Both the position numbers and the translations under genes were made by a program. A DNA stretch of 64,000 bases from Paragyromitra xinjiangensis (Eukaryota; Ascomycota; Pezizomycetes; Pezizales; Discinaceae), in contig JBCAMK010000018.1 of assembly GCA_038503065.1 (NCBI GenBank), forward strand, positions 1,116,001-1,180,000, written 5' to 3'. The notes under the pieces were generated by a model, which had not been told where the DNA came from, did no database searches, and was given only the letters and a program-made list of their open reading frames with translations. Below are positions 8,403 to 38,011 of this stretch, in pieces (positions within the stretch are counted from its first letter, which is position 1; each line of letters opens with the position of its first letter).

Positions 8403-11400
8403 ATGGCTGAAATCATCGGACTCGTTTCCAGTCTCGTCGGTATTATACAGATTGCTGGCCAGGTAGCTATCTTAACCCATGGCTATATTGGCGGGGTAAA
8501 GCGGGCATCACAAGATATCTCATCGCTTATAGATGAACTTGGGTCGCTCAGTAAAGTTCTCGGTGCTTTGAAGGACTATATTGAGACTAAGCCAAAATCG
8601 CTTGCTCTTTTGAAGCTTAATGGCCCTGATGGTCCCATCCGAGGTTGTGTTTGCGAGCTTGAGATGCTCCGGGCTAAATTAGCGCCTAGGGATGGGTTCA
8701 AGGGGCTACTGGACAGTCTTAAGTGGCCACTAAAAGAAGCCGAGACCCAGGCTTATGTCGCGCAGTTTGAGAGACATAAAACTCTCTTCACTCTAGCTCT
8801 TTCTGTCGATCATATGTGAGTTAGATTGGAATGTAATATTCTCTTTGAACGAATTACGCTAATCCGAGACTAGAACACTCTCGAAAGAGATTGAAGCTTA
8901 CGTCCAAACCACAACGGTTCTTGTTCAAGATATTTGGGTAGAATCAACAGATCAGAGAGCCTGGAGACTGAAATATGACACTATTTACTTAAGTAATAAT
9001 ATGCTTTGTGTTTTATGCTATCCTTATTGAATTCCGTTACTGATCCTAGTGTTAGCGGAAAAACGGGACAGGGTGCTGGGTTGGTTAAGCCCGAAAGATT
9101 TTGAGAGAAGAACTGAAGACAAGCATCTCGAAACCAGCAAACTAAGATACGAAAATACTGGTAAATGGCTATTGATAACGCCAGAACTTCGGGATTTGGT
9201 TAAGAAAAATACGAAGTTTTCGCTACTTTGGGGGTTTGGAATTCGTAAGTCTGATCAACAAAGGGATCTCTGATGGGTTGATAATAACCGAATTTATAAT
9301 AGCTGGAGCGGGAAAAACGTTTTTAAGGTATGCAGTTCCTCTTCTGTATAGGAGGTTTCTTTGCTCGAATATTTTCTCCAAATCCAAAATTCTTCAGAGA
9401 ATTGGGGAAGCTTGCCTCTCGTTCAGGGTTGGCCGTCAAACATAAATTAGGCGAGCTAATGTAACTGATGGCGAGAGGTTTGGCCCGCGACGAATTCCCT
9501 TGTCCAGTGATGACTTTCATATACCAGTCCGAATATGCCTTCACTTATCCTCTCTCTATATCATCAGATCTTGCCTCATTTGTATCTCCACTAGCCAGGG
9601 GATCATCTAGGATCTGATCGATCCTATCCACCCCTTCTGATATTTATCTTTTCTCACGCCCTTCTTCTCAGCCTCAAATATATCGCGAATTTTACCAACT
9701 AACAAATGGCTTATCATACAGCTCAGTCGTGATCGATCACTTCTTAAAGGAGGCAACTACGAAAAAATACGGTGTAGCCTACATGTACTTCGAGTACAAA
9801 GAAAGGGAGCAACAGACTCCTATGAATATCCTTGCTAGTGTGGTTAGACAGCTTGCGGCTCAAATCCCCACCCTCCCCACGGAAATCGAGGCTCTCTACG
9901 ATAGACTAGAGAGCAAAGGGGGGAGACTTAATTTCGAAGGACTATATACCGCGTTGACTGCGACACTCAAATCATTCGATCAAGTATTTTTGGTTTTCGA
10001 TGCTTTAGACGAATGCGATGCAAGGGGTCAGCGGAGGGAACTTCTTCCGCTATTCCATCGTATGAAGAAAAGTGGCGCTAGCCTGTTTGTGACTAGTCGT
10101 CAATACCCCGAAGATATCCAGGAATCCTTCCGCGATGCGGCAAAGATCGAGCTCTCGCCAAAAGGGGAGGATATCGGGGCCTTCATCCAGCAGAGGATTG
10201 ATGAGGACGCCCGAGCTAGACGTCTTGTTCGACAGGCGAAATGTGAAAGCAGAATTGTCTCCGAGCTAGTTGATACCTCGCAAGGGATGTGAGTATTAGG
10301 TGGGCGCTGGTTTTAGAGCTTGGCTGACAGAGGGCCTAGGTTCTTGCTTGCTCGTTTTAATATCGAATATATCTGCCAACAACCTACTGCAAAGAAGGTC
10401 TTGATTGCCCTCGATAAAATCAAGAGCTCTTCTACAACAGACAGGCCTTTGGATCCCACTTACGATCGAGCTATGGAAACACTCCGAAGCCAAAGCGAAG
10501 ACTGTATAGAAATGGGATTGCTCGTGCTCACCTGGTTGGTAAAGGCCAGCAGGACGCTCACAGTCGAAGAGATCCGTGTGGCGATTGCGATCGAGTGCGA
10601 TCGGTACGAACTCGACGAACTCGACTTACCGGATAAGACAACAATTCTTGACGTTTGTGCCGGACTAGTAATCATCGATGAAACTAGTAACACTATGAAG
10701 CTGGCTCATTATACAGTTCAGGAATATCTTTTGAATAATTCAGTAATACCTAAAGACTCAGACTTCAAGCTTGCGATGGCTTGTACTACGTTCCTGGCAT
10801 TCGAGGTCTTCGCCGAAGGCGCCTGCACGTCTGATGCCGCTCTCAAGGAGCGGCTTGAGTCACAACCATTCCTTGTATATGCTGTTCATCAGTTGTCGGA
10901 TCACCTTAAAACTTGCGATGAAGACCAAACGACCGATATGGTCATGAAATTTCTTGAAAATCCTGGTAATATCACGTCCTACCTTCAAGTCTTGTACTAC
11001 GAAGAGGAGGTAGAGGATATTGAAGAGGACAACAATGAATATAGTGAAGAGGAGGAGGAGGAGGAGGAAGAAGAAGAAGAGGAGGCGGGAGAGGATGCAC
11101 AGGTGGAGGTGGAGGCAGAACCTTTTGACTGCTATCCAAAGCAGCACTCCGCTACACACGTGGCATCGGCACTAGGGCATCGTGCTGCGCTCGAACTATT
11201 GATGGCGCAAGGAGTTGATATCTCAATCCCAGATAGCTTTGGGAATACGCTCCTTCATCTTGCAGCGGCTGGGGGACATGATGAGATAGTTGAGCTGTTG
11301 ATCGAAAATGGATTCGATTGTTCAACCCTAAACCTAGTTCGAGAAACGGCATTGCACCTTGCTGCATGGGGAGGACACGAGTCTGTGGCACGTCTCCTAC

Positions 11401-12821
11401 TAAAGCAGGGAGCCGAATTGCCCATTCAAGCAACTAATGGCTCAACAGCATTATTTCAGGCAGCGATGGCCGGAAACCTCGAGGTTGTTCGTCTACTGCT
11501 TGAAAATAATGCGGATAGTTCGACTCCCGACATGGATGGGGAAACAGCACTACATATTGCCGCAGTTGAGGGCCACAGAGAGGTGTTCCGCCTACTGCTT
11601 GAGCATGGTGCAGATTTCACTGTTATGGATGATGCTGGAGAAACTGCACTGCACGAAGCTGCTTGGAAAGGTGATGAGCAATCAGTCCAATTGCTAATCG
11701 AAAGAGGCGCCGATATATCCGTTCGAGATAAAAATGGAGTTTCGGCATTAGGCAATGCAGTGTCTGCTGGCCACATCGAGGTGGTTAAACTTTTACTTGA
11801 TAAAGGTGCAGACTTTCTGGGTGTGGACAACGATGGAGAGACACTGCTACACATCTCTGCAAGAGCAGGGCACCCTGATGTTTCCCTTCTACTACTTGAG
11901 CGCGGTACAGATATTTTCGTGGTAGACAACGAAGGACAGACTGTGCTCCATCAAGCTGCCTGGCTCGGTGATGAACGGCTAGTCGAATTACTGATTAAAA
12001 GAGGCGCCGAGATATCCGCTATCGACAAGTGCAAATGCACACCGTTACGCAACGCATCATTAGCTGGCCACGCTCGTACAGTTCATCTTCTTCTCGAGGG
12101 AGGTGCGGATTTTTCTATTGCAGATACAGCTGGTTTTCAGCCTCTGCACTACGCAGCATACCATGGCCGTCTCGAATCAATCCCCATACTACTTGATAAG
12201 GGGGCGGATATATCTGCTGTCGAGAGCAGTGGAGCAACACCACTGATGCTCGCAGCAACTGGCGGGCACGAGGCGGTGATACGGCTGTTAATCGAGAGAG
12301 GTGCCAGTTGCTTTGTTCGAAATACGTCAAATGAAGGGCCATTACACCTAGCTGTGTACAAGAGCCGCACTGCAGCTGTGCACCTGCTACTCGAGAATGG
12401 CGTTGATATTGACGCTCGGGACGATGATGGGGAAAGCGCGTTGCATACAGCTGCCCGGGGAAGCGATGAGAAAATGGTCCAGTTATTGCTTGAAAACGGT
12501 GCCGATATAAACCTTCTTGATAACGCAGGAAAGTCAGCACTGAACAGGGCAGCGAAGTGGGGTAATCTTGCGGCGTTGCAGCTGCTCCTCGAAAAGGGTG
12601 CTGATATCTCCAACCAGAACAAAAGGGGACACACTGCACTGCACCACGCGGCAGGGGCGGGGCACGAAGCGGTGACGCAATTGTTGCTCGATAAGGGTGC
12701 CGACATATCTGTTAAAGATGCCCAGGGAGAAACAGCTCTTGATAAGGCGGTGTCTCGGGGACATAGTGGCGTAGTTGCTTTACTAGAGTCAGCAACACCC
12801 AAAGAAGCGAAAATAACGTGA
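8403..12821 (+). CDS. STAND/NLR-type protein: HeLo-like N-terminus, NACHT ATPase, 17 ankyrin repeats
   Basis: Probable intracellular NTP-switch receptor of the fungal NLR class, the type involved in incompatibility and cell-death signalling. Exons are 8403-8815, 8874-8992, 9050-9244, 9303-9327, 9722-10288 and 10340-12821, giving 1266 residues. Residues 1-137 resemble the fungal STAND N-terminal/HeLo-like helical domain (start MAEIIGLVSSLVGIIQIAG). The P-loop PGAGKT is at 243-248, encoded by a 25-nt exon. Walker B (VFLVFDALDEC) is at about 339-349. A winged-helix-like region follows to about 640. An acidic linker, including 12 or more Glu in a row, is at about 661-700. About 17 repeats of 33 residues fill 709-1254. 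The intron before exon 5 is unusually long (394 nt). It converges on the NLR-kinase gene, its paralog. The ligand and the output are unknown. Confidence 0.88.
11045..11098 (+). repeat. GAG/GAA trinucleotide microsatellite inside the NLR gene
   Basis: A run of GAG and GAA codons encodes a poly-Glu tract that separates the NACHT/winged-helix part from the ankyrin array. Such tracts change length easily by slippage. Confidence 0.85.
11145..12789 (+). repeat. Ankyrin-coding tandem repeat array (17 x 99 nt)
   Basis: Each unit follows the ankyrin pattern xTALHxAAxxGHxxVxxLLLxxGADxxxxDxxG. Repeats 5-7 resemble repeats 8-10 one for one: AAWKGDEQSVQLLIERGADIS in repeat 6 pairs with AAWLGDERLVELLIKRGAEIS in repeat 9. 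This implies a past block duplication of three units (297 nt). Nucleotide identity between units is modest, so the array is not freshly homogenised. Confidence 0.85.
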
Positions 12822-14040: not shown

Positions 14041-17000
14041 TTAGTTTTCCTCTTCTAATAGCCAGGGGCCTTCCAGGCCTTCTGCTGGAGGCATTCGAGA
14101 GCTGGGGTTGGGGTCCAGCAGTCTCTTCACGAACTGGATCCCTTCTCCACTTACTTGGGAACCCTGCAAAGGTCCAATCGGAAACTCAATGGTACCCTGG
14201 CAATAGTCTAACAGAAGCCCCATATCTACCTGCGGCGCTACAGACCCCTCACCCAATTCCTCGAACAAAGACATTTCTGAATAACCGATTGGGAATGGTT
14301 CTTCAGCGAAAGGTAGCTTAGAAGTCAAAATTTCATGGACGAGACAGCCCAAAGCCCAAAAATCCACAGCATTGGTGTATGATCTGCCTATTCCAAACCG
14401 TTTAGGCAATAGTCCCAAAATCTCTGGGGCTAGATAGCCTCCTGTTCCAAGTTGCGTGTGTAGATTAGTATTTTTCTCGCGTTTCGAGACCCCGAAATCA
14501 GCAATTTTGACCCATATCGGCTTCACGCAAGCAACGAGAACGTTCTGTGCTATGAACTTAGCTTTCCAGGGCATTAAGATTGCGAGGATGTATGGATGCC
14601 AACCTGCGGCTTCAAATCGCGATGACATATCTGTCTTTCATGCAGTACCATAAGCCCTTGGTGAAGTTGATTGGCAATCTCTCTAGCTTTTAACCGTGCG
14701 CTTCCGTCTTTGATATATTGACTCAAGTCGCCGTACTCCACGTACTCCATTGCAATGTACAGGAACTGACTATCCTCGTACCATCCGAAAAATTCTACGA
14801 ACAGATGTTGATGCTTTCGTCCCATTAGGTTCATACCCAAAAAGGAAAATAGACCCACGTACATCTGTCAATTTGGCCAAAATATTCAATTCTTGCGAAT
14901 AATCGACGTTTCGCCTTGCTAGGGACAATTTTTTCACTGCTCTTAACTTGCCTCTTTTCTCCTCTTCAAGCAAGACAACCCCAAACCCCCCAACACCTAT
15001 CTCTTTTTTCAATGCCCACCTCTCTTCAATGGGGACCTTCCGCTGCCTAGCCGCAAGGTCTGTTTTGTATATTGTGTGGATTACAATATCCTCGAGTATT
15101 GTGGTTTCTAGCCTATATCTACCAGCCTTTGAACTCAGGTTTGCGTGAATGGCTTTTATATTCCCATTATTATCCGTAGCGGAGACATCATTGTCCTTAA
15201 GAGGAAGCTGGACTACCGATTTTTGGCTCTCAAAAGCATCTGGACCTGGAGACTCGGCCCGTTTCTGTAACATGGATCGAACAAGAGACTCCTGCCCTTT
15301 GCTTTTTGCCCAGTCTAGGGCTGTGACTCCGTTCTTATCTGCGATGAATGGGCTGGCGCCTTTCTGAAGTAGCAAGCGAGCTACCGATTCATGCCCTTCA
15401 AAAGATGCAAGATGAATTGCAGTTCGTCCGTTGTTATCCACAGCATCAATATCCATACATGTATCTTCTACTAAAAGCCGAGCAACGGAGCAGTGCCCTA
15501 GGGCGGCTGCTATATGCAATGAATTCTGACCCCTAGGATACGCACTATAACCATCTTCATCGTTAAATACTCCGGAATCCTGGATGTAGTGTCTTGGGGT
15601 AGCATGAACCGCCTGTAAATAAGAATCGACGCTCCCTGGATTCTCCAAAAATTTGAGAATAAGCTGTGTGGTTGACTCCTCATCACATCCTTCAAGGTGA
15701 AAGGGTAGATTATTTGCTGCATAGTCGAGGAAGGGGTAAAGTCCACGCCGGGTGCGTAGTGAATAATCAGAGTCGCATGCACCCTCAGCAAATATATCAA
15801 ACGAAAGAAAGGTAGCACATGTCATGGTTAGCTGAAAGTCCGTGTCCTTCAGAATTATCGAGTTTCTAGACAAATACTCTTCCAGCGTAGGGTGCACAAG
15901 ACGAATTGTGTCATCAGATTCGTCGATCGTCACCAATCCAACGCACATGTCAAGTAGGGCGATTCTATCGGGTAAATCCATCTCCTCAAGCTCGTACCTC
16001 TCAGGCTCTATAGCAATTACTGTTCGAAGTTCGTCGACTGTAAGCGTGCGTTGAACCTTGCAAAGCCATGAGAAAATCCTAGAAGCCAAATCCACGCAAC
16101 TTCGAGATTTTAACCGAAGAAGTGTCATAGCTTGATCATAAATAGGGTCTAAAGGCTTCTCCTGGCCAGAAGAACTTTCAATCTTATCAAGTTCAGTCAA
16201 GATTTGTTTACTGGTGGCCTGTTGACAAATGTGCTCGAGGTAGAGATGAACAAACAGGAACCTAAACCCAGTCAATATATTGAAGGAAATCTCAATGCGT
16301 AGAACACTTACATCCCCTTAGCACAGTTAGTTAGGCAGGAGATAACTCTATCTTCACATTGTGCACGGTCAACAAGACGCCTCGCCCTAGAGTTCTCATC
16401 AATTTTTTGTACGATGTAGAGAGCGATGTCTTCATCCTTTGCCGAAATCCTGATCTTCAGTGCTGAATCGGACAAAAAATTATGGATATCTTCTGAGTAT
16501 TCCCGGCTTGTTATGAATAAGTTTACACCGGCCTTGCGTATCTGGTGGAACAATGGCAAATATTCTTTCTGCCGAGCCTCCTGGTGACATTCGTCCAAGG
16601 CGTCGCAAATGACGAATGTTCGGACGAATGACTTTGTCAATACTACGAGAACGGCACACAAGTCTTCGAGGCTAGGCCGTTTTTGCTGACCTTTTAGGGT
16701 TTCATACAGCTTTTCGATAACCTCTGGAATTTGTGGTACTTGGCACACCAGTTGTTTAACTAGGCTGGAAAAGATGTCGATAGATCCTTTCTGGTCGTGA
16801 TCGAAGTAAATATAAGCAACTCCATAGTTCTCCGCCGTACCGCTCAACAGATAGTCGATCACCATAGAACTAGGCCAAAGTCAGGACTCTGATTGCTTCC
16901 TCTAATAGTCTCACTCGGAGGCCAGTTGGATCCTACCTAACAAACGTTTTACCAGCACCAGCTATAATTACGTTCACTGTTAGGCTCGATATCTAGCAAA

Positions 17001-17880
17001 AACCGCCCCCTTGTGTTAGTACGTACGAATTCCATAACCCCAAAGTAATCTGTAATTTGAGTCTTTCCATTCCACAAACTCCGGGGATTTCAGAATCCAT
17101 TGACAAGTATTCCTTTGCCTTCTGCGGTGAATCTTGACGTGCGTTTTGTCAAAGGCTTCCGGATACAACCAATCCAGCAATCTTGTTTGTTGAGTCACTT
17201 CGACCGAGTCAAATCAGACACGTGACCACTCATCAGCAACAACATTCGCTATCAGAACCATCCAAAAGAAATTCGAGCATCCCTTACCAACCCAAGTTTT
17301 ATCATCTCTTTCTCTCTCTAAATTCAAGGCTCCCACACGTGCCTCCATAATCCTTGATCGTGATCTGCCGACGATCCAGCTCCATGTTAGCGGGATCGCA
17401 AGATACCCTAGGGGCTAGAGATTGTATATATCGTGTGACTGATTTACAGTGCCAGTAATATAATTTCCCCACCTAACGAAACACCTCAGTCTCAACTTAC
17501 AACTGAACACCACTCAAAACATGGGTAAAATTCTCCCTATGCCTTTTCAATACCAAAACATATCTCGAAGAAACCCTCTCACTCCATTTCAACCTAACCA
17601 CAAATGACCGCGACGACTCGCTATTACGCAATTTTTGGCGCAACTTCTCTATATCACTCTGACATGCCCGGATAGTGTGCTCAATACTCGGTAACGATCC
17701 AGGTTCTGCAGTTTCGCAGTTTTCCACACTCTTAAGGACCTGGGTGAGCAATTCCAGCTCATCCAAAATACCTTGGATATTTTCTGAGAACTTTTTCTGC
17801 CTAGAGCTTAACCGAATAGCATCTCCTGCGAGCTCAATGACAGCAGTGATGGCGACGATGACACCGACGCTCGAAGCCAT
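14041..17880 (-). CDS. STAND/NLR protein with C-terminal protein kinase: HeLo-like, NACHT, ankyrin, Ser/Thr kinase
   Basis: Probable NTP-switch receptor with a built-in kinase output. Exons, transcript order: 17880-17501, 17364-17288, 17197-17027, 16961-16937, 16869-16312, 16261-14863, 14813-14604, 14544-14041; total 3324 nt, 1107 residues, in frame throughout. Residues 1-130 form a HeLo-like/STAND N-terminal domain. The P-loop PGAGKT is at 210-215, encoded by a 25-nt exon as in the paralog. Walker B (FVICDALDEC) is at 303-312. About three ankyrin repeats lie at 648-739. The kinase runs from about 820 to 1107: glycine loop GVGGFGVV 826-833, Lys847 (AVKK), HRDLKPQN 934-941, DFG 956-958 and GTGGYLAPE in the activation segment. 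All catalytic motifs are intact. The HRDLKPQN motif only appears after intron 14603-14545 (GTTGGC donor) is removed. The first intron (136 nt) is the least certain junction. Confidence 0.85.
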
Positions 17881-20464: not shown

Positions 20465-23356
20465 ATGGGCTCTCTCGGATCCGAAAAAGACCTTACCAAC
20501 GGTGAACGGAATGTGGAAATCATAGACATCCGCGTCAACAAGTCTGAACTCACCAATTCTCTAAAAGACGACATTCTAGCTGGTCTACAGAATGGAATGG
20601 GCCAAAAAACACTCCCGACGTTGCTGCTGTATGACGAGCGTGGATTGAAAATATTTGAGGAAATCACATATAGTGACGAGTACTACCTGACCAACACCGA
20701 AATCTCAATTCTAGAGCAGTATGCGGAGAACATGGCCGAGCGGATCGAAGATGGTGGGATCTTATTGGAATTGGGGAGTGGGTGAGATCATCCCTTTCAT
20801 GCTTAGGAATGGAGTGATCATTCCCACGGAGACTCCCGGTTAACCCTCCCTAGGAACCTCCGGAAGGTGAATATCCTCCTCCATGCACTCGACCGTCTCG
20901 GAAAGAAAATCACTTATTACGCCCTTGATCTCGACCGCTCCGAGCTCGTGCGAACACTCCTCACTGTTCCTCCGGGAACCTTCAAAAACGTTCGTTGCGT
21001 TGGTCTTCATGGCACCTACGACGATGGTCGAGCCTGGCTTCGCTCCTCCGCGACTGCAAAAGACAAGAGTCGTTGCATCCTGTGGCTTGGGTCCTCTGCG
21101 GGGAACTTCAATTTGAATGAAATTGCGGAATTCCTGCGCCAGTGGACAGAAGATGCACTACGTGCTGGGAAACAGGATTGTATGCTGGTTGGTCTCGACG
21201 GCTGTAAAGTTGGGAAGAAGGTTCACTTGGCGTATAACGATCCCAAGGGCCTAACAAGGGAGTTTATTCTAAACGGGCTTTGGAATGCGAATAAAATATT
21301 AGGAAAGGAATACTTTGTCCCCGGAGAGTGGGGCTACATCGGAGAGTGGAACACTGAGGAAGGTAGGCACCAGGCCTACTACGAAGCATTGAGAGACATC
21401 ACCTTCGGGGGAGAATTCCAAGGCATCACAGTGAAGAAGGGCGAAAGAGTCAACGTCGAGTACAGCTACAAGTTCGACGAAGTCGAATCACGGCTGCTCT
21501 GGTCCCAGTCCGGACTAATGGAGGGCGCACAATGGTCCAATGCCGCTGGCGATTATTGTATGTGCACAATTGTGGAAATAACCCTAACCCTAACATCTAT
21601 CTGACCGCTGACATTATGAAACCCAGATCTCCACATGCTCTATAAACCCAGCTTCTTCTTCCCGTTAGGCCCACCTTTGAAGTATGCTCCGGAGCCAGCC
21701 CCGACTGTCGCTGAGTGGAAAGAACTTTGGGCTGCTTGGGATCTTGTCACCCTCGGCATGATCCCGAAGGAGAGACTTCTCGCGAAGCCAATTGATCTTC
21801 GAAATCCGTGCATCTTCTATCTCGGTCATATCCCAACTTTCTTGGATATGCATATCACCCGCGCGACAGGCAGTGATATGACTTCCCCAGGGCAGAAGTA
21901 TCAGGACATCTTCCAGCGCGGGATCGACCCTGATGTGGACGATCCGACTCAGTGCCATAAACACAGCATTGTGCCAGATTGCTGGCCGAAGCTGGAGGAA
22001 ATACTAGATTTCACTCGTAGAGTTAGGGAGAGAACTCTAGCGCTGTATGATGATTCTGGAAGCATTAAGAATTCTTCGGTAAGGTTGCAGCGGGCATTAT
22101 GGGTGGGGTTTGAGCATGAGGCGATGCATCTAGAAACACTGCTGTACATGTTGGTGCAAAGCGAAGATACACTCCCACCGCCTGGGGTGACGGTTCCGGA
22201 CTTTGTATCTAGGAGGGCGTGGGAGAGACGGCGGAAAGGTAATGAGGAGGCGGAGAAGGCATGGGTTGAAATTCCAAAGCAGGTAATTGATATCGGGATT
22301 GATGACCCCGAGGACTTTGAGGGCGAGGTGAAAGTCAATGGTAATGGAGTTCACAATGGAGTTCACAATGGCAATGGTGTACCAGAGCGCTACTTTGGTT
22401 GGGATAACGAGAAGCCGCGTCGGGAAGGGATCGAGGTACCAGCATTTAAAGTTAGAGCATATCCTATCACCAATGAAGAGTACGCACAATACCTTTACGC
22501 CACATCCCCCACGTCGATTCCCGTATCATGGACTCCCACGGTTCAGACTACAAACGGAGTCAAGAATGGCATGAAAGACTCTTTCGAGCATTTCCTTTCT
22601 TCTAAATCTGTTAGGACAGTATTCGGACCTGTTCCCGTAACACTCGCTGCTGACTGGCCAGTGATTGCGTCGTACGATGAGTTAGCGGGTTGTGCTGCGT
22701 GGATGGGTGGCAGGATCCCAACGGCAGATGAAGTCAGGGCTCTGTATAACTTTGTAGAAACGACTGAGGTAGCAGAAAAGACGCTTACAAAGCGGATTGA
22801 TGCTGTGAATGGGTGAGTTGGCAATTTTCTTACAAGACCCTTTCCCCCGTATCATTATATTTATAGTGTGTCCGCTAGTCACTTAATCAACAACGGCGTC
22901 CGCGAGTCTCCTCCATCCGCCGAATCACTGTTCATGGACCTCCGCGACCACAACACCGGTTTTAAGTACTGGCACCCGACGTCAGTTCGGACCAGCGGGA
23001 ATCGTACCCCTCTTGGCCGTTGCGCAACCGGAGGTGCATGGGAATGGACCAGCAGTGTGTTGGAGCGCCATGAAGGGTTCAAAGAAGGACCGTTGTACCC
23101 AGAATATACTGGTGAGTCGTGTGAATGATGTCGGTAGCGCGGTTCTAACAGCGTGGTAGCGGATTTCTTCGATGGGAAACATAATATCATCCTAGGTGGG
23201 AGCTGGGCGACGCATCCAAGACTTGCAGGGAGGAGGAGCTTGTAAGTTGAATTCCTTGGGAATTAGTGGATTGGTACTGATAGTGTGGGTAGTGTGAATT
23301 GGTATCAGCGCAATTATAAGTATACGTGGGCTACTGCTAGAATTGCTGCGATATAA
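20465..23356 (+). CDS. EGT1: Ergothioneine biosynthesis protein 1 (fused EgtD-like methyltransferase and EgtB-like sulfoxide synthase)
   Basis: Makes hercynine from histidine and SAM, then couples it oxidatively to cysteine: the first two steps of fungal ergothioneine synthesis. Exons are 20465-20781, 20854-21557, 21627-22812, 22867-23111, 23160-23241 and 23293-23356, giving 865 residues, usual for fungal Egt1. Residues 1-340 are the SAM-dependent methyltransferase (LELGSGNLRKV near 102-112, LLYDERGLKIFEEI upstream). From about 341 the EgtB half begins. Likely iron ligands are His408 (YLGHIP), His504 and His508 (FEHEAMHLET). The C-terminal formylglycine-generating-enzyme-like lectin fold has GGAWEWTSS, ILGGSWATHPRLAGR and FVNWYQRNY. 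An Asn/Gly/His low-complexity insert is at about 577-592. Intron 2 holds a short telomere-like repeat. The intact frame suggests a functional enzyme. Confidence 0.95.
21579..21594. repeat. Interstitial telomere-like CCCTAA repeat in an EGT1 intron
   Basis: About 2.7 units of CCCTAA lie inside the 69-nt second intron of EGT1. The fungal telomere repeat is usually TTAGGG, so this matches in sequence but is far too short to be a telomere. Confidence 0.8.
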
Positions 23357-35916: not shown

Positions 35917-38011
35917 TTATTCGGCAAGAGTGTCAACCTCGTTGAGCTGGTTAAGATAAAGGTTTACTGGGCTGCAGTTATCCCCATACACTGGTTGATC
36001 GTAGAGGTTGTTGACTACCACTTATATTAGTCCCATCTTAAATACCATCAAAACCGACTAGAGGGGGTTATTACAGTCGGAACTCCCGCATGCATAGAAT
36101 ACATTGCTGCCTCCTAACCCCAGGGTTCCATCATCACAAGTCGAGAATCCCGCAGTATAGATAGCGCCTGCCTGAGGCGGGCCATCAAATTGAAACTGAC
36201 GGTTATCGGCAATATAACCAATACGGCCCAGGCTGTCAGTGAGAACACCGTTATCGAGAGAAACAGCAACGGGAACCCCGTTTTGGCGGGTCTTGAGGAT
36301 AGAACGCTTCACTTGGCGAGCTTGCACTTGGCCATCAGCAATCTGGGTCACCGTACCCGAGCTAGTACCTTCATTGCTGTTGACTGACGAGCCCTCAGCC
36401 GCACCAAGTGCAGAAGGAGACTGTGGGACTTCACCCTGGGCGGCAAACTGGGAAGCTTCCTGGCCAACCCGAGCCGGAGGAATTCCTTGTGCACCTGCCT
36501 CAGCAGCGGCAAAACCAGCATTGGCTACCTGGCCCGGGGTAGCACCCACGGTAGCACCTTCGGAAGAAGAGATACTGTTAGAAGAACTGTTACTAGTGCC
36601 CGCAGAATCTACGCTAGCGGCACCGGGGTTGGAGCCTTGAGGAGCTTGGATCTGGCCATCACCAATCTGGGTCACCGAACCAGAAGGGCCTCCAGGCGTA
36701 GAGGAACTTTGGGGCGTGGAAGGCCCAGGAGTAGGGGATCCTTGAGATGGAGAAGGGCCTTCAGGTGTATGACCTTCATTGATGCCCACAGAAGATACGC
36801 TGGTACCGGAGCCTTGAGGGGCTTGGACCTGTCCATCGCCAATCTGGGCCACCGGACCAGGAGGACCTCCAGGTGTAGAGGGACTTTGGGGCGTGGAAGG
36901 CCCAGGAGTAGGGGATCCTTGAGATGGAGAAGGACCTTCAGGCGTATGACCTTCATTGATGCCCACAGAAGATACGTTGGTACCGGAGCCTTGAGGGGCT
37001 TGGACCTGTCCATCGCCAATCTGGGTCACCGGACCGGAAGGACCTCCAGGCGTAGAGGGGCTTTGGGGCGTGGAAGGCCCAGGAGTAGAGGACCCTTGAG
37101 GTGCAGAAGGACCTTCGGGGGTAGAGGCTGAGGGAGGCTGAGGAACTGAAGAGGCCTCAGGAGCAGAAGAAGGTTGAGGAGCAGACGAAAGTTGAGGAGC
37201 AGACGAAGGTTGAGGAGCAGACGGGGGTTGGGGAGCAGAAGAAGGCTGGGGAGCAGAAGAAGGCTGGGGAATTGAAGGGGCAGAGGGGGCAGAGGGGGCA
37301 GAGGGGGTAGGAATTTCGGGTGCAGAAGGAGCCTCTGGAGCCGGGCCTTCGTTATTGTCAGTGCCAGGAGCCTGGACTTGACCGTCAGAAATTTGGGTGA
37401 CGGAACCAGGCCCAATTCCAGCACCGGAACCACTAGGAGTACCAGTTGTGGTGTTGATACCGCTCACAGAGGCGTTACTAGCAGCTCCAGAGGGGACAGC
37501 TTCTTGTTGGGAAGCTGTGTTAGCTAAGCCGGAAGCAGTTCCAGCAGCAGATACTGTAGAGGCTGTGAATAGGTTAATGATAGTCAATTATTAGAAGGAT
37601 AGAAATTTACTCACCAGAGCCGACGTTGCTTGGGGCTTGGACTTGGCCTATATATTGACGTTAGTAACAAGCAACTCAAAGCATCAACGGAGAGCAGTGG
37701 AACTAAGCCCTACCATCTGCAATCTGGGTTACATCTTGTCTCTTTCTAAGAGGAGCTACAACTATAGCCATCAAATCTCATCAGATACTCATCTATCCAT
37801 CTACAGACTCAGTGCTTCGTTCCACTATAAGGGACATACCACCAACGGGAGCAATGGAAACCCCAAAGTTACCCAGAGCACTGAGATTGCATTGCTCAGG
37901 AGCAGGGCCAGGGCTGATGATTTCAGTAACACCCTGGGCTACAGGGAGAGCACGAGCATTTGCACCGATGCCAGCAGTTGCAATGAGGAGAGGAAGAATG
38001 TGAGCGATCAT
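35917..38011 (-). CDS. PIR-type (proteins with internal repeats) cell-wall protein
   Basis: Secreted cell-wall structural protein that Pir repeats typically link to beta-1,3-glucan by an alkali-labile ester. Exons, transcript order: 38011-37840, 37734-37714 (21 nt), 37647-37615 (33 nt), 37562-36075 and 36014-35917, giving 603 residues in frame. The signal peptide is [19 protein letters not shown]. Pir motifs (QIxDGQVQA) occur about six times: [13 protein letters not shown] built across an intron, [48 protein letters not shown] and [12 protein letters not shown]. They are separated by Pro/Ser/Ala-rich spacers, probably O-mannosylated. The C-terminal domain [20 protein letters not shown] continues through a 60-nt intron into [19 protein letters not shown]. 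Without that last exon the protein would end early and lose a conserved Cys. Confidence 0.88.
36656..37125 (-). repeat. 177-bp tandem repeat in the PIR gene
   Basis: Units start at 36656, 36833 and 37010; the third is partial. Each codes for 59 residues: one Pir motif plus a Pro/Ser/Gly spacer. The first two units differ at only a few bases, so the duplication is recent and the length is likely to vary between strains. Confidence 0.88.

What the first reader, a model, noticed from the sequence alone, without database searches (positions are those of the whole stretch)
14041..17880. NLR-type receptor with a complete protein kinase fused after the ankyrin repeats
The sequence shows one in-frame, eight-exon gene running HeLo-like, NACHT (P-loop and Walker B), three ankyrin repeats, then a kinase with every catalytic motif: glycine loop, Lys847, HRDLKPQN, DFG, APE. 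Fungal STAND proteins usually carry the effector domain at the N-terminus and repeats at the C-terminus. A kinase placed after the sensor repeats would put a second, enzymatic output on the same switch. The kinase motifs are only seen after two introns are removed, so automatic annotation could easily split or miss it.
Basis: partly seen in the sequence, partly recalled or inferred. Interest (0 to 1): 0.88.

Follow-up and report, generated by a model that had tools for sequence, protein, structure and literature searches.

The report
Fungal immune receptor with kinase tail
This fungal gene really does join an immune-receptor-type switch to a complete protein kinase, and relatives elsewhere share the join, but receptors of this general kind with a kinase at the tail were already described in other fungi.

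Summary
Ankyrins, glycine loop and catalytic lysine share one uninterrupted exon. Proteins from two unnamed metagenome contigs (P0297, P0300) match that exon at 60% and 58%, best in the kinase N-lobe: a kept fusion, not an artefact. The kinase belongs to an expanded family: of 48 loci surveyed in this genome, 37 of the other 46 have ankyrins AFTER the kinase; only the window has NACHT in the upstream flank examined. One more locus has a kinase after ankyrins, with DFG lost. A 2025 paper (PMC12258605) describes nine Sordariales NACHT receptors with C-terminal CHK2-like kinases, proposed as decoys. Ours looks like an independent case in a Pezizales-like genome, its kinase nearest to another family. 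Bait or output is open; I favour bait or guarded sensor, with the HeLo-like domain as output.

The parts
17501..17880 (-). Exon 1: N-terminal HeLo-like (PF17111-type) helical domain
   Evidence: PF17111 E 7.7e-4, below cut-off; aligns with Morchella P0121-P0123 (35, 34 and 32 of 126 identical); four helices, pLDDT 63; no significant fold match.
17182..17500 (-). Uncertain stretch: one 319-nt intron (7-exon model) or two introns around a 77-nt exon 17364-17288 (8-exon model, next exon then starts at 17197)
   Evidence: Morchella relatives have extra residues here, which favours the 8-exon model; one search listed 30 in-frame variants. No transcript data.
16312..17181 (-). Exons 17181-17027, 16961-16937, 16869-16312: NACHT-type NTPase (P-loop, Walker B)
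   Evidence: NPHP3_N E 1.2e-34; removing 17026-16962 restores GIPGAGKT.
14863..16261 (-). Large exon: winged helix, three ankyrin repeats, linker, kinase leader, N-lobe with glycine loop and catalytic Lys
   Evidence: matched over essentially its whole length by P0297 (60%) and P0300 (58%).
14604..14813 (-). Exon with kinase hinge and HRDLKPQ
   Evidence: the intron position after LKPQ (14603-14545) is shared by the related kinase loci examined in the genome.
14041..14544 (-). Last exon: DFG, APE, rest of the C-lobe, stop
   Evidence: P0251 matches at 63% over residues 909-1073.
8403..12821 (+). Neighbouring kinase-less paralogue: HeLo-like, NACHT, long ankyrin array; ends 1220 bp from the end of the receptor-kinase gene (tail to tail). 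Context, not part of the gene.
   Evidence: 40% identity over residues 187-745; kinase residues of the query match nothing else in the window.

Best explanation
A genuine fungal NLR (HeLo-like, NACHT, winged helix, three ankyrins) whose sensing end has been fused to a kinase from the organism's own expanded leader-kinase-ankyrin family. Most likely way it works (inferred): the kinase is an integrated sensor or guarded bait. A non-self factor or attacker that targets kinases of this family touches the fused copy, the change relieves inhibition of the NACHT switch, the protein oligomerises, and the HeLo-like domain acts on membranes. Shown: the fused frame, the domains, the same fusion exon on two other contigs, intact catalytic residues, nearest kinase family. 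Inferred: ligand, oligomerisation, membrane action, role of kinase activity. I hold the anatomy at about 0.95 and this mechanism at about 0.45.
For: Fusion. The fusion exon is shared with P0297 and P0300 (60%, 58%), with identity to the window of 74-78% in the N-lobe, 59-68% in the leader, 56-63% in winged-helix, following and ankyrin parts, 12-25% in the linker. The kinase sits at the recognition end and the ankyrins are about three in all three, against a long array in the neighbouring paralogue. The same kinase family was also placed after a 14-repeat ankyrin array in another gene of this genome (L040), where DFG has become GFE, so catalysis seems dispensable in that parallel fusion. Precedents: nine Sordariales NACHT NLRs with C-terminal kinases proposed as integrated decoys; barley Rpg5, an NLR with a C-terminal kinase, listed among integrated-decoy candidates.
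Against: All catalytic motifs are intact and the N-lobe is the most conserved part of the exon, which fits an active enzyme at least as well as a bait. No attacker, ligand, expression or population data. The HeLo-like assignment is sub-threshold and its fold model inconclusive. Loss of DFG is seen in a single parallel fusion, and that gene shows no NACHT match to the query. P0297 and P0300 are fragments: neither shows the NACHT or the kinase C-lobe.
Confidence: 0.5

Rival explanations
1. The kinase is a second, enzymatic output: NACHT oligomerisation brings kinase domains together, they phosphorylate each other and then other proteins.
For: Complete catalytic set; N-lobe 74-78% identical where winged helix and ankyrins are 56-63%; in most related genes surveyed the kinase comes first with ankyrins behind it, the position effectors hold in fungal NLRs; PKinase is a listed N-terminal NLR domain.
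Against: It sits at the sensor end here; the parallel fusion L040, grouped near it (support 0.785), lost DFG; a HeLo-like output seems already present.
Confidence: 0.3
2. The fusion is real but dispensable: a gene fusion drifting without function, or a damaged gene (the stretch between HeLo-like and NACHT is poorly defined).
For: The 319-nt stretch 17500-17182 shows no clear coil like the relatives'; 10 of the 30 strongest other NLR matches in this genome have stops inside the match, some perhaps introns.
Against: No stop in the 1076 or 1107 joined codons; fusion exon matched at 58-60% on two other contigs with the N-lobe best conserved; an 8-exon model fills the gap in frame.
Confidence: 0.1
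3. Two separate genes or an assembly chimera read as one.
For: The leader starts about where free relatives have their start codon, and at C12 an NLR gene lies about 2 kb upstream of a kinase-ankyrin gene on the same strand.
Against: Ankyrins and kinase N-lobe share one open exon; no Met between 703 and 861; the same join occurs on two other contigs.
Confidence: 0.03

Closest known systems
Sordariales T-NACHT NLRs with C-terminal PKinase (PMC12258605; e.g. chafim-1_g9256 of Chaetomium fimeti)
   Same: NACHT NLR with a complete tripartite architecture plus a protein kinase at the C-terminus; proposed integrated decoy.
   Different: Theirs resemble CHK2/PRD-4 and are read as one event in Chaetomiaceae and Podosporaceae. 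Ours is nearest to a leader-kinase-ankyrin family (65-69% to three partial sequences, 54-58% to the nearest own-genome members; 32% to a RAD53-named Colletotrichum protein, P0169). Their sequences were not in hand for a direct comparison.
Leader-kinase-ankyrin proteins of Pezizales (P0001, P0002 Maublancomyces gigas; P0005 Morchella snyderi; own-genome loci)
   Same: Same kinase type and N-terminal leader; same kinase intron positions in the own-genome loci.
   Different: There the kinase comes first with ankyrins after it; no NACHT match in the 120 listed proteins or in the flanks surveyed.
HeLo-like NACHT-ankyrin NLRs of Morchella (P0121-P0123)
   Same: N-terminal domain, NACHT, winged helix, ankyrins; P0121 42% over 66% of the query.
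   Different: No kinase domain listed.
Barley Rpg5 (plant NLR with C-terminal kinase)
   Same: NLR plus C-terminal kinase, listed as an integrated-decoy candidate (PMC4246468, passages).
   Different: Plant NB-LRR built of other parts; relation of the kinases not tested.
MLKL / RIPK3 necroptosis pair
   Same: HeLo and HeLo-like domains are reported as homologues of the MLKL four-helix bundle; here a HeLo-like domain and a kinase are on one chain.
   Different: MLKL has a pseudokinase and no NACHT (recalled); no phosphorylation shown here.

Membership tests
Fungal NLR (STAND, NACHT type) | Nucleotide-binding domain with P-loop and Walker B | tested here: met
   NPHP3_N E 1.2e-34; GIPGAGKT and DALDE. 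The NACHT profile itself is below its cut-off (17.5 vs 26.7 bits).
Fungal NLR (STAND, NACHT type) | Superstructure-forming repeats C-terminal to the switch | tested here: met
   Ank_2 621-708 above cut-off.
Fungal NLR (STAND, NACHT type) | N-terminal effector domain of HeLo-like type (PF17111) | tested here: inconclusive
   19.3 bits vs cut-off 27.2; homologue P0121 passes at 27.7; four-helix model of low confidence, no significant PDB match.
Fungal NLR (STAND, NACHT type) | Ligand-induced oligomerisation and response | not testable with these tools
   Needs experiments.
Active eukaryotic protein kinase | Full domain with glycine loop, Lys, Glu, HRD, DFG, APE | tested here: met
   Pkinase 3-263 of 263, E 3.6e-48; residues.
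Active eukaryotic protein kinase | Phosphotransfer activity | not testable with these tools
   Needs an assay.
Sordariales NLR clade with C-terminal CHK2-like kinase | NACHT NLR with complete tripartite plan and C-terminal PKinase | tested here: met
   the HeLo-like part with the caveat above.
Sordariales NLR clade with C-terminal CHK2-like kinase | Kinase derived from CHK2/PRD-4 | tested here: inconclusive
   Nearest relatives are the leader-kinase-ankyrin family, not the one RAD53-named protein used, which served only as root. But RAD53 is the best kinase match among solved structures (E 3.9e-34) and a Maublancomyces family member is itself named 'Protein kinase protein rad53' (P0246), so a deeper CHK2/RAD53 link of the whole family is open.
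Sordariales NLR clade with C-terminal CHK2-like kinase | Nucleotide-binding domain monophyletic with the nine | not tested
   Their sequences were not in hand.
Leader-kinase-ankyrin family | N-terminal leader and the two intron positions | tested here: met
   Leader visible in P0001, P0002 and own loci. After LKPQ a gap of 47-403 nt between exon matches at 48 of 48 loci; at the preceding position 30-250 nt at 40 of 48, no leader/N-lobe match in that call at 7, one mismatched tandem.
Leader-kinase-ankyrin family | Kinase first, ankyrins behind | tested here: not met
   Order reversed here.
Integrated decoy | Effector binds the integrated domain and triggers the receptor | not testable with these tools
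   No effector known.

The most novel reading that the evidence does not exclude
A single-chain 'necrosome': NACHT oligomerisation brings the C-terminal kinases together, they phosphorylate the N-terminal HeLo-like bundles of neighbouring subunits, and this releases the bundle to the membrane. That is RIPK3-MLKL logic, with executioner homologue and kinase on one receptor, in a fungus.
Probability: 0.12. Interest if true: 0.85.

Novelty: new variant of a known kind. Interest (0 to 1): 0.45.

Why it matters
It looks like a second, independent capture of a kinase at the tail of a fungal NACHT receptor, in another fungal class and from a kinase nearest to another family than the published one, and the fusion exon is also present in at least one other genome (two contigs). 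Such repeated capture makes the question 'bait or output?' testable in fungi as it is in plants. The source family (48 loci surveyed here, mostly kinase plus ankyrins) itself looks like a receptor-type family worth studying.

Tried and rejected
Two-gene or assembly-error reading: rejected (one exon, no Met, same join on two other contigs). Direct CHK2 origin as in Sordariales: not supported by nearest relatives, but a deeper link is open. HeLo fold by structure: the exon-1 model (5-row alignment) had pLDDT 63, and Foldseek against PDB gave 385 matches with E up to 10, none at 0.001 or better: inconclusive. One search's motif strings contain misalignments: L036 seemed to have lost the HRD Asp (also written so in notebook entry 5), but direct reading shows HRDLKPQ and DFG intact; for HRD and DFG I use. 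A clade of 'tail kinases' (window, L040, L036) was considered: support 0.785 and L036 shows no ankyrins in its flank, so not claimed. Limits: the whole-length homologue search scored only the 7998 candidates sharing most words; homologue searches list the best 120 of 1753, 2766 and 1742 hits, and only proteins of 0.55-1.75 times the query length were candidates, so rarer NACHT-kinase fusions may have been missed. No transcript data. The contigs behind P0297, P0300 and P0251 were not fetched (metagenome scans capped at 0).

Full report
WHAT IS THERE. The gene lies on the minus strand, ATG at 17880, stop ending at 14041. My 7-exon model (17880-17501, 17181-17027, 16961-16937, 16869-16312, 16261-14863, 14813-14604, 14544-14041) gives 1076 aa with no internal stop. 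Pfam: NPHP3_N 151-309 (E 1.2e-34), weak winged helix 430-508, ankyrins 621-708 (E 8.1e-25), Pkinase 790-1071 (E 3.6e-48, 3-263 of 263). The N-terminal exon matches PF17111 below cut-off (19.3 of 27.2 bits); a paper calls PF17111 'HeLo-like' (PMC9815663, passages), and a Morchella relative with the same plan passes the cut-off narrowly (P0121, 27.7 bits).

WHY IT IS ONE PROTEIN. The ankyrins, linker, kinase leader, glycine loop, Lys816 and Glu830 are in one uninterrupted frame (14770-16317). A given random frame of this base composition stays open for 515 codons with a chance of about 1e-12. No methionine lies between 703 and 861. Proteins from two unnamed metagenome contigs, P0297 and P0300 (330 of 467 aligned residues identical to each other), match essentially the whole exon: 60% over residues 374-839 and 58% over 377-852, with about three ankyrins each and frames that end within about 20 residues after the donor site. 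They could be two loci of one organism, so they stand for at least one other genome; nothing else in the window's own genome matches the exon at that level (best other matches 47-52% and confined to the receptor part). Identity to the window by part, P0297 and P0300: N-lobe 39 and 37 of 50, leader 24 and 28 of 41, ankyrins 58 and 53 of 94, winged helix part 86 and 85 of 137, next part 64 and 65 of 104, linker 10 and 5 of 40. P0251 (63%) looks like the last exon of such a gene, from a third contig. The splice sites of the kinase part are supported by homology: at 48 of 48 kinase-family loci examined in the window's own genome there is a gap of 47-403 nt between exon matches after LKPQ, and at 40 of 48 a gap of 30-250 nt at the preceding intron position.

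WHERE THE KINASE COMES FROM. A search with residues 735-1076 gave 1753 proteins at E 1e-3 or better; of the best 120, the only ones listed, none showed a NACHT or HeLo match to the window protein. The nearest named ones are Maublancomyces gigas P0001 and P0002 (47%), Pezizales, and there the kinase comes first with ankyrins behind it. The window's own genome (48.2 Mb, 22 contigs) holds a large family. I surveyed 48 loci (those I fetched; weaker and unlisted matches were left out, and one locus, L053, seems to hold two kinases): of the 46 besides the window and L040, 37 have ankyrins downstream, 9 have none in the fetched flank, none has ankyrin or NACHT matches in its upstream flank of 536-2701 bases. 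At C12 a separate NLR gene lies about 2 kb upstream of a kinase-ankyrin gene, beyond that flank. In a tree of 83 query-anchored kinase rows the window groups with P0297, P0300 and P0251 (support 0.936; the inner node 0.357); the next nodes outward are 0.785 (with L040 and L036), 0.184 and 0.426, then 0.836 and above up to the last listed node (0.828). P0297 and P0300 contribute only 97 and 103 positions. RAD53 is the best kinase match among solved structures (E 3.9e-34). The organism is inferred to be a Pezizales-like fungus because the best named relatives are Maublancomyces and Morchella; it was not identified.

A PARALLEL CASE. Locus L040 (C18:1243500-1253000, minus) has an 855-aa frame with about 14 similar ankyrins followed by the same kind of leader and kinase N-lobe; its last kinase exon reads KISGFEF where the window reads KIADFGV. 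The string DFG is present at 47 of 48 loci and HRD at 45 of 48. No NACHT match was found in the fetched stretch; cysteine/histidine patterns upstream look zinc-finger-like but Pfam support is weak (zf-C2H2_2 E 0.37). So the kinase module stands behind ankyrins in at least two genes of this genome, and DFG was lost in one. Whether these are one or two capture events is not settled by the tree.

HOW IT MOST LIKELY WORKS. NACHT, winged helix and repeats make a switch; the N-terminal HeLo-like domain is the likely output (HeLo and HeLo-like domains are reported to target membranes; PMC12881547, passages). The kinase sits at the recognition end. I favour integrated sensor or guarded bait (0.45), then enzymatic output (0.3). 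For bait: position, short ankyrin array, the DFG-less parallel fusion, and precedents. For enzyme: all catalytic motifs intact and the strongest conservation in the N-lobe. None of this decides it.

WHAT IS KNOWN. Dyrka et al. 2014 (PMC4986451, passages) list PKinase among N-terminal NLR domains. The 2025 Sordariales study (PMC12258605, passages plus sections 14 and 20 read) reports PKinase in 12 NLRs, nine C-terminal, monophyletic by nucleotide-binding domain, similar to CHK2, and proposes decoys. Its main text does not mention Pezizomycetes, Pezizales, Tuber or Morchella. Barley Rpg5 is the plant parallel (PMC4246468, passages). Other library searches listed, besides PMC12258605, no paper whose title or start of abstract describes a fungal NLR with a C-terminal kinase; I saw only listings for most of them, and the library holds open-licence papers only. 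Hence: new variant of a known kind, interest 0.45.

Noticed in passing
L040 (G000:C18:1243500-1253000, minus): Ankyrin array of about 14 similar repeats fused to a kinase of the same family with DFG changed to GFE; another kinase placed behind ankyrins in this genome.
   Followed up: partly
window 8403-12821 (+): Kinase-less HeLo-like/NACHT paralogue with a long ankyrin array, tail to tail with the receptor-kinase gene.
   Followed up: partly
L039 (G000:C12:1855500-1865000, minus): An NLR-ankyrin gene (stops inside the match) lies about 2 kb upstream of a kinase-ankyrin gene on the same strand: an arrangement from which such a fusion could arise.
   Followed up: partly
G000, 48 loci surveyed: Large expansion of leader-kinase-ankyrin genes, some in clusters (C10:463477-503741, C20:1192241-1221685).
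   Followed up: partly
P0021 (Glarea lozoyensis), P0017, P0023, P0148: Related kinases joined to other parts also used by NLR-like proteins: a 230-aa N-terminal stretch without a Pfam match plus ankyrins (P0021), WD40 (P0017), GTPase (P0023), TPR (P0148).
   Followed up: no
window 20807-22816 (+): Histidine-specific methyltransferase, DinB_2 and FGE-sulfatase domains in adjacent frames; looks like an ergothioneine synthase gene (Egt1; name recalled).
   Followed up: no
window 36058-37587 (-): PIR-repeat cell wall protein (PF00399, PF22799).
   Followed up: no
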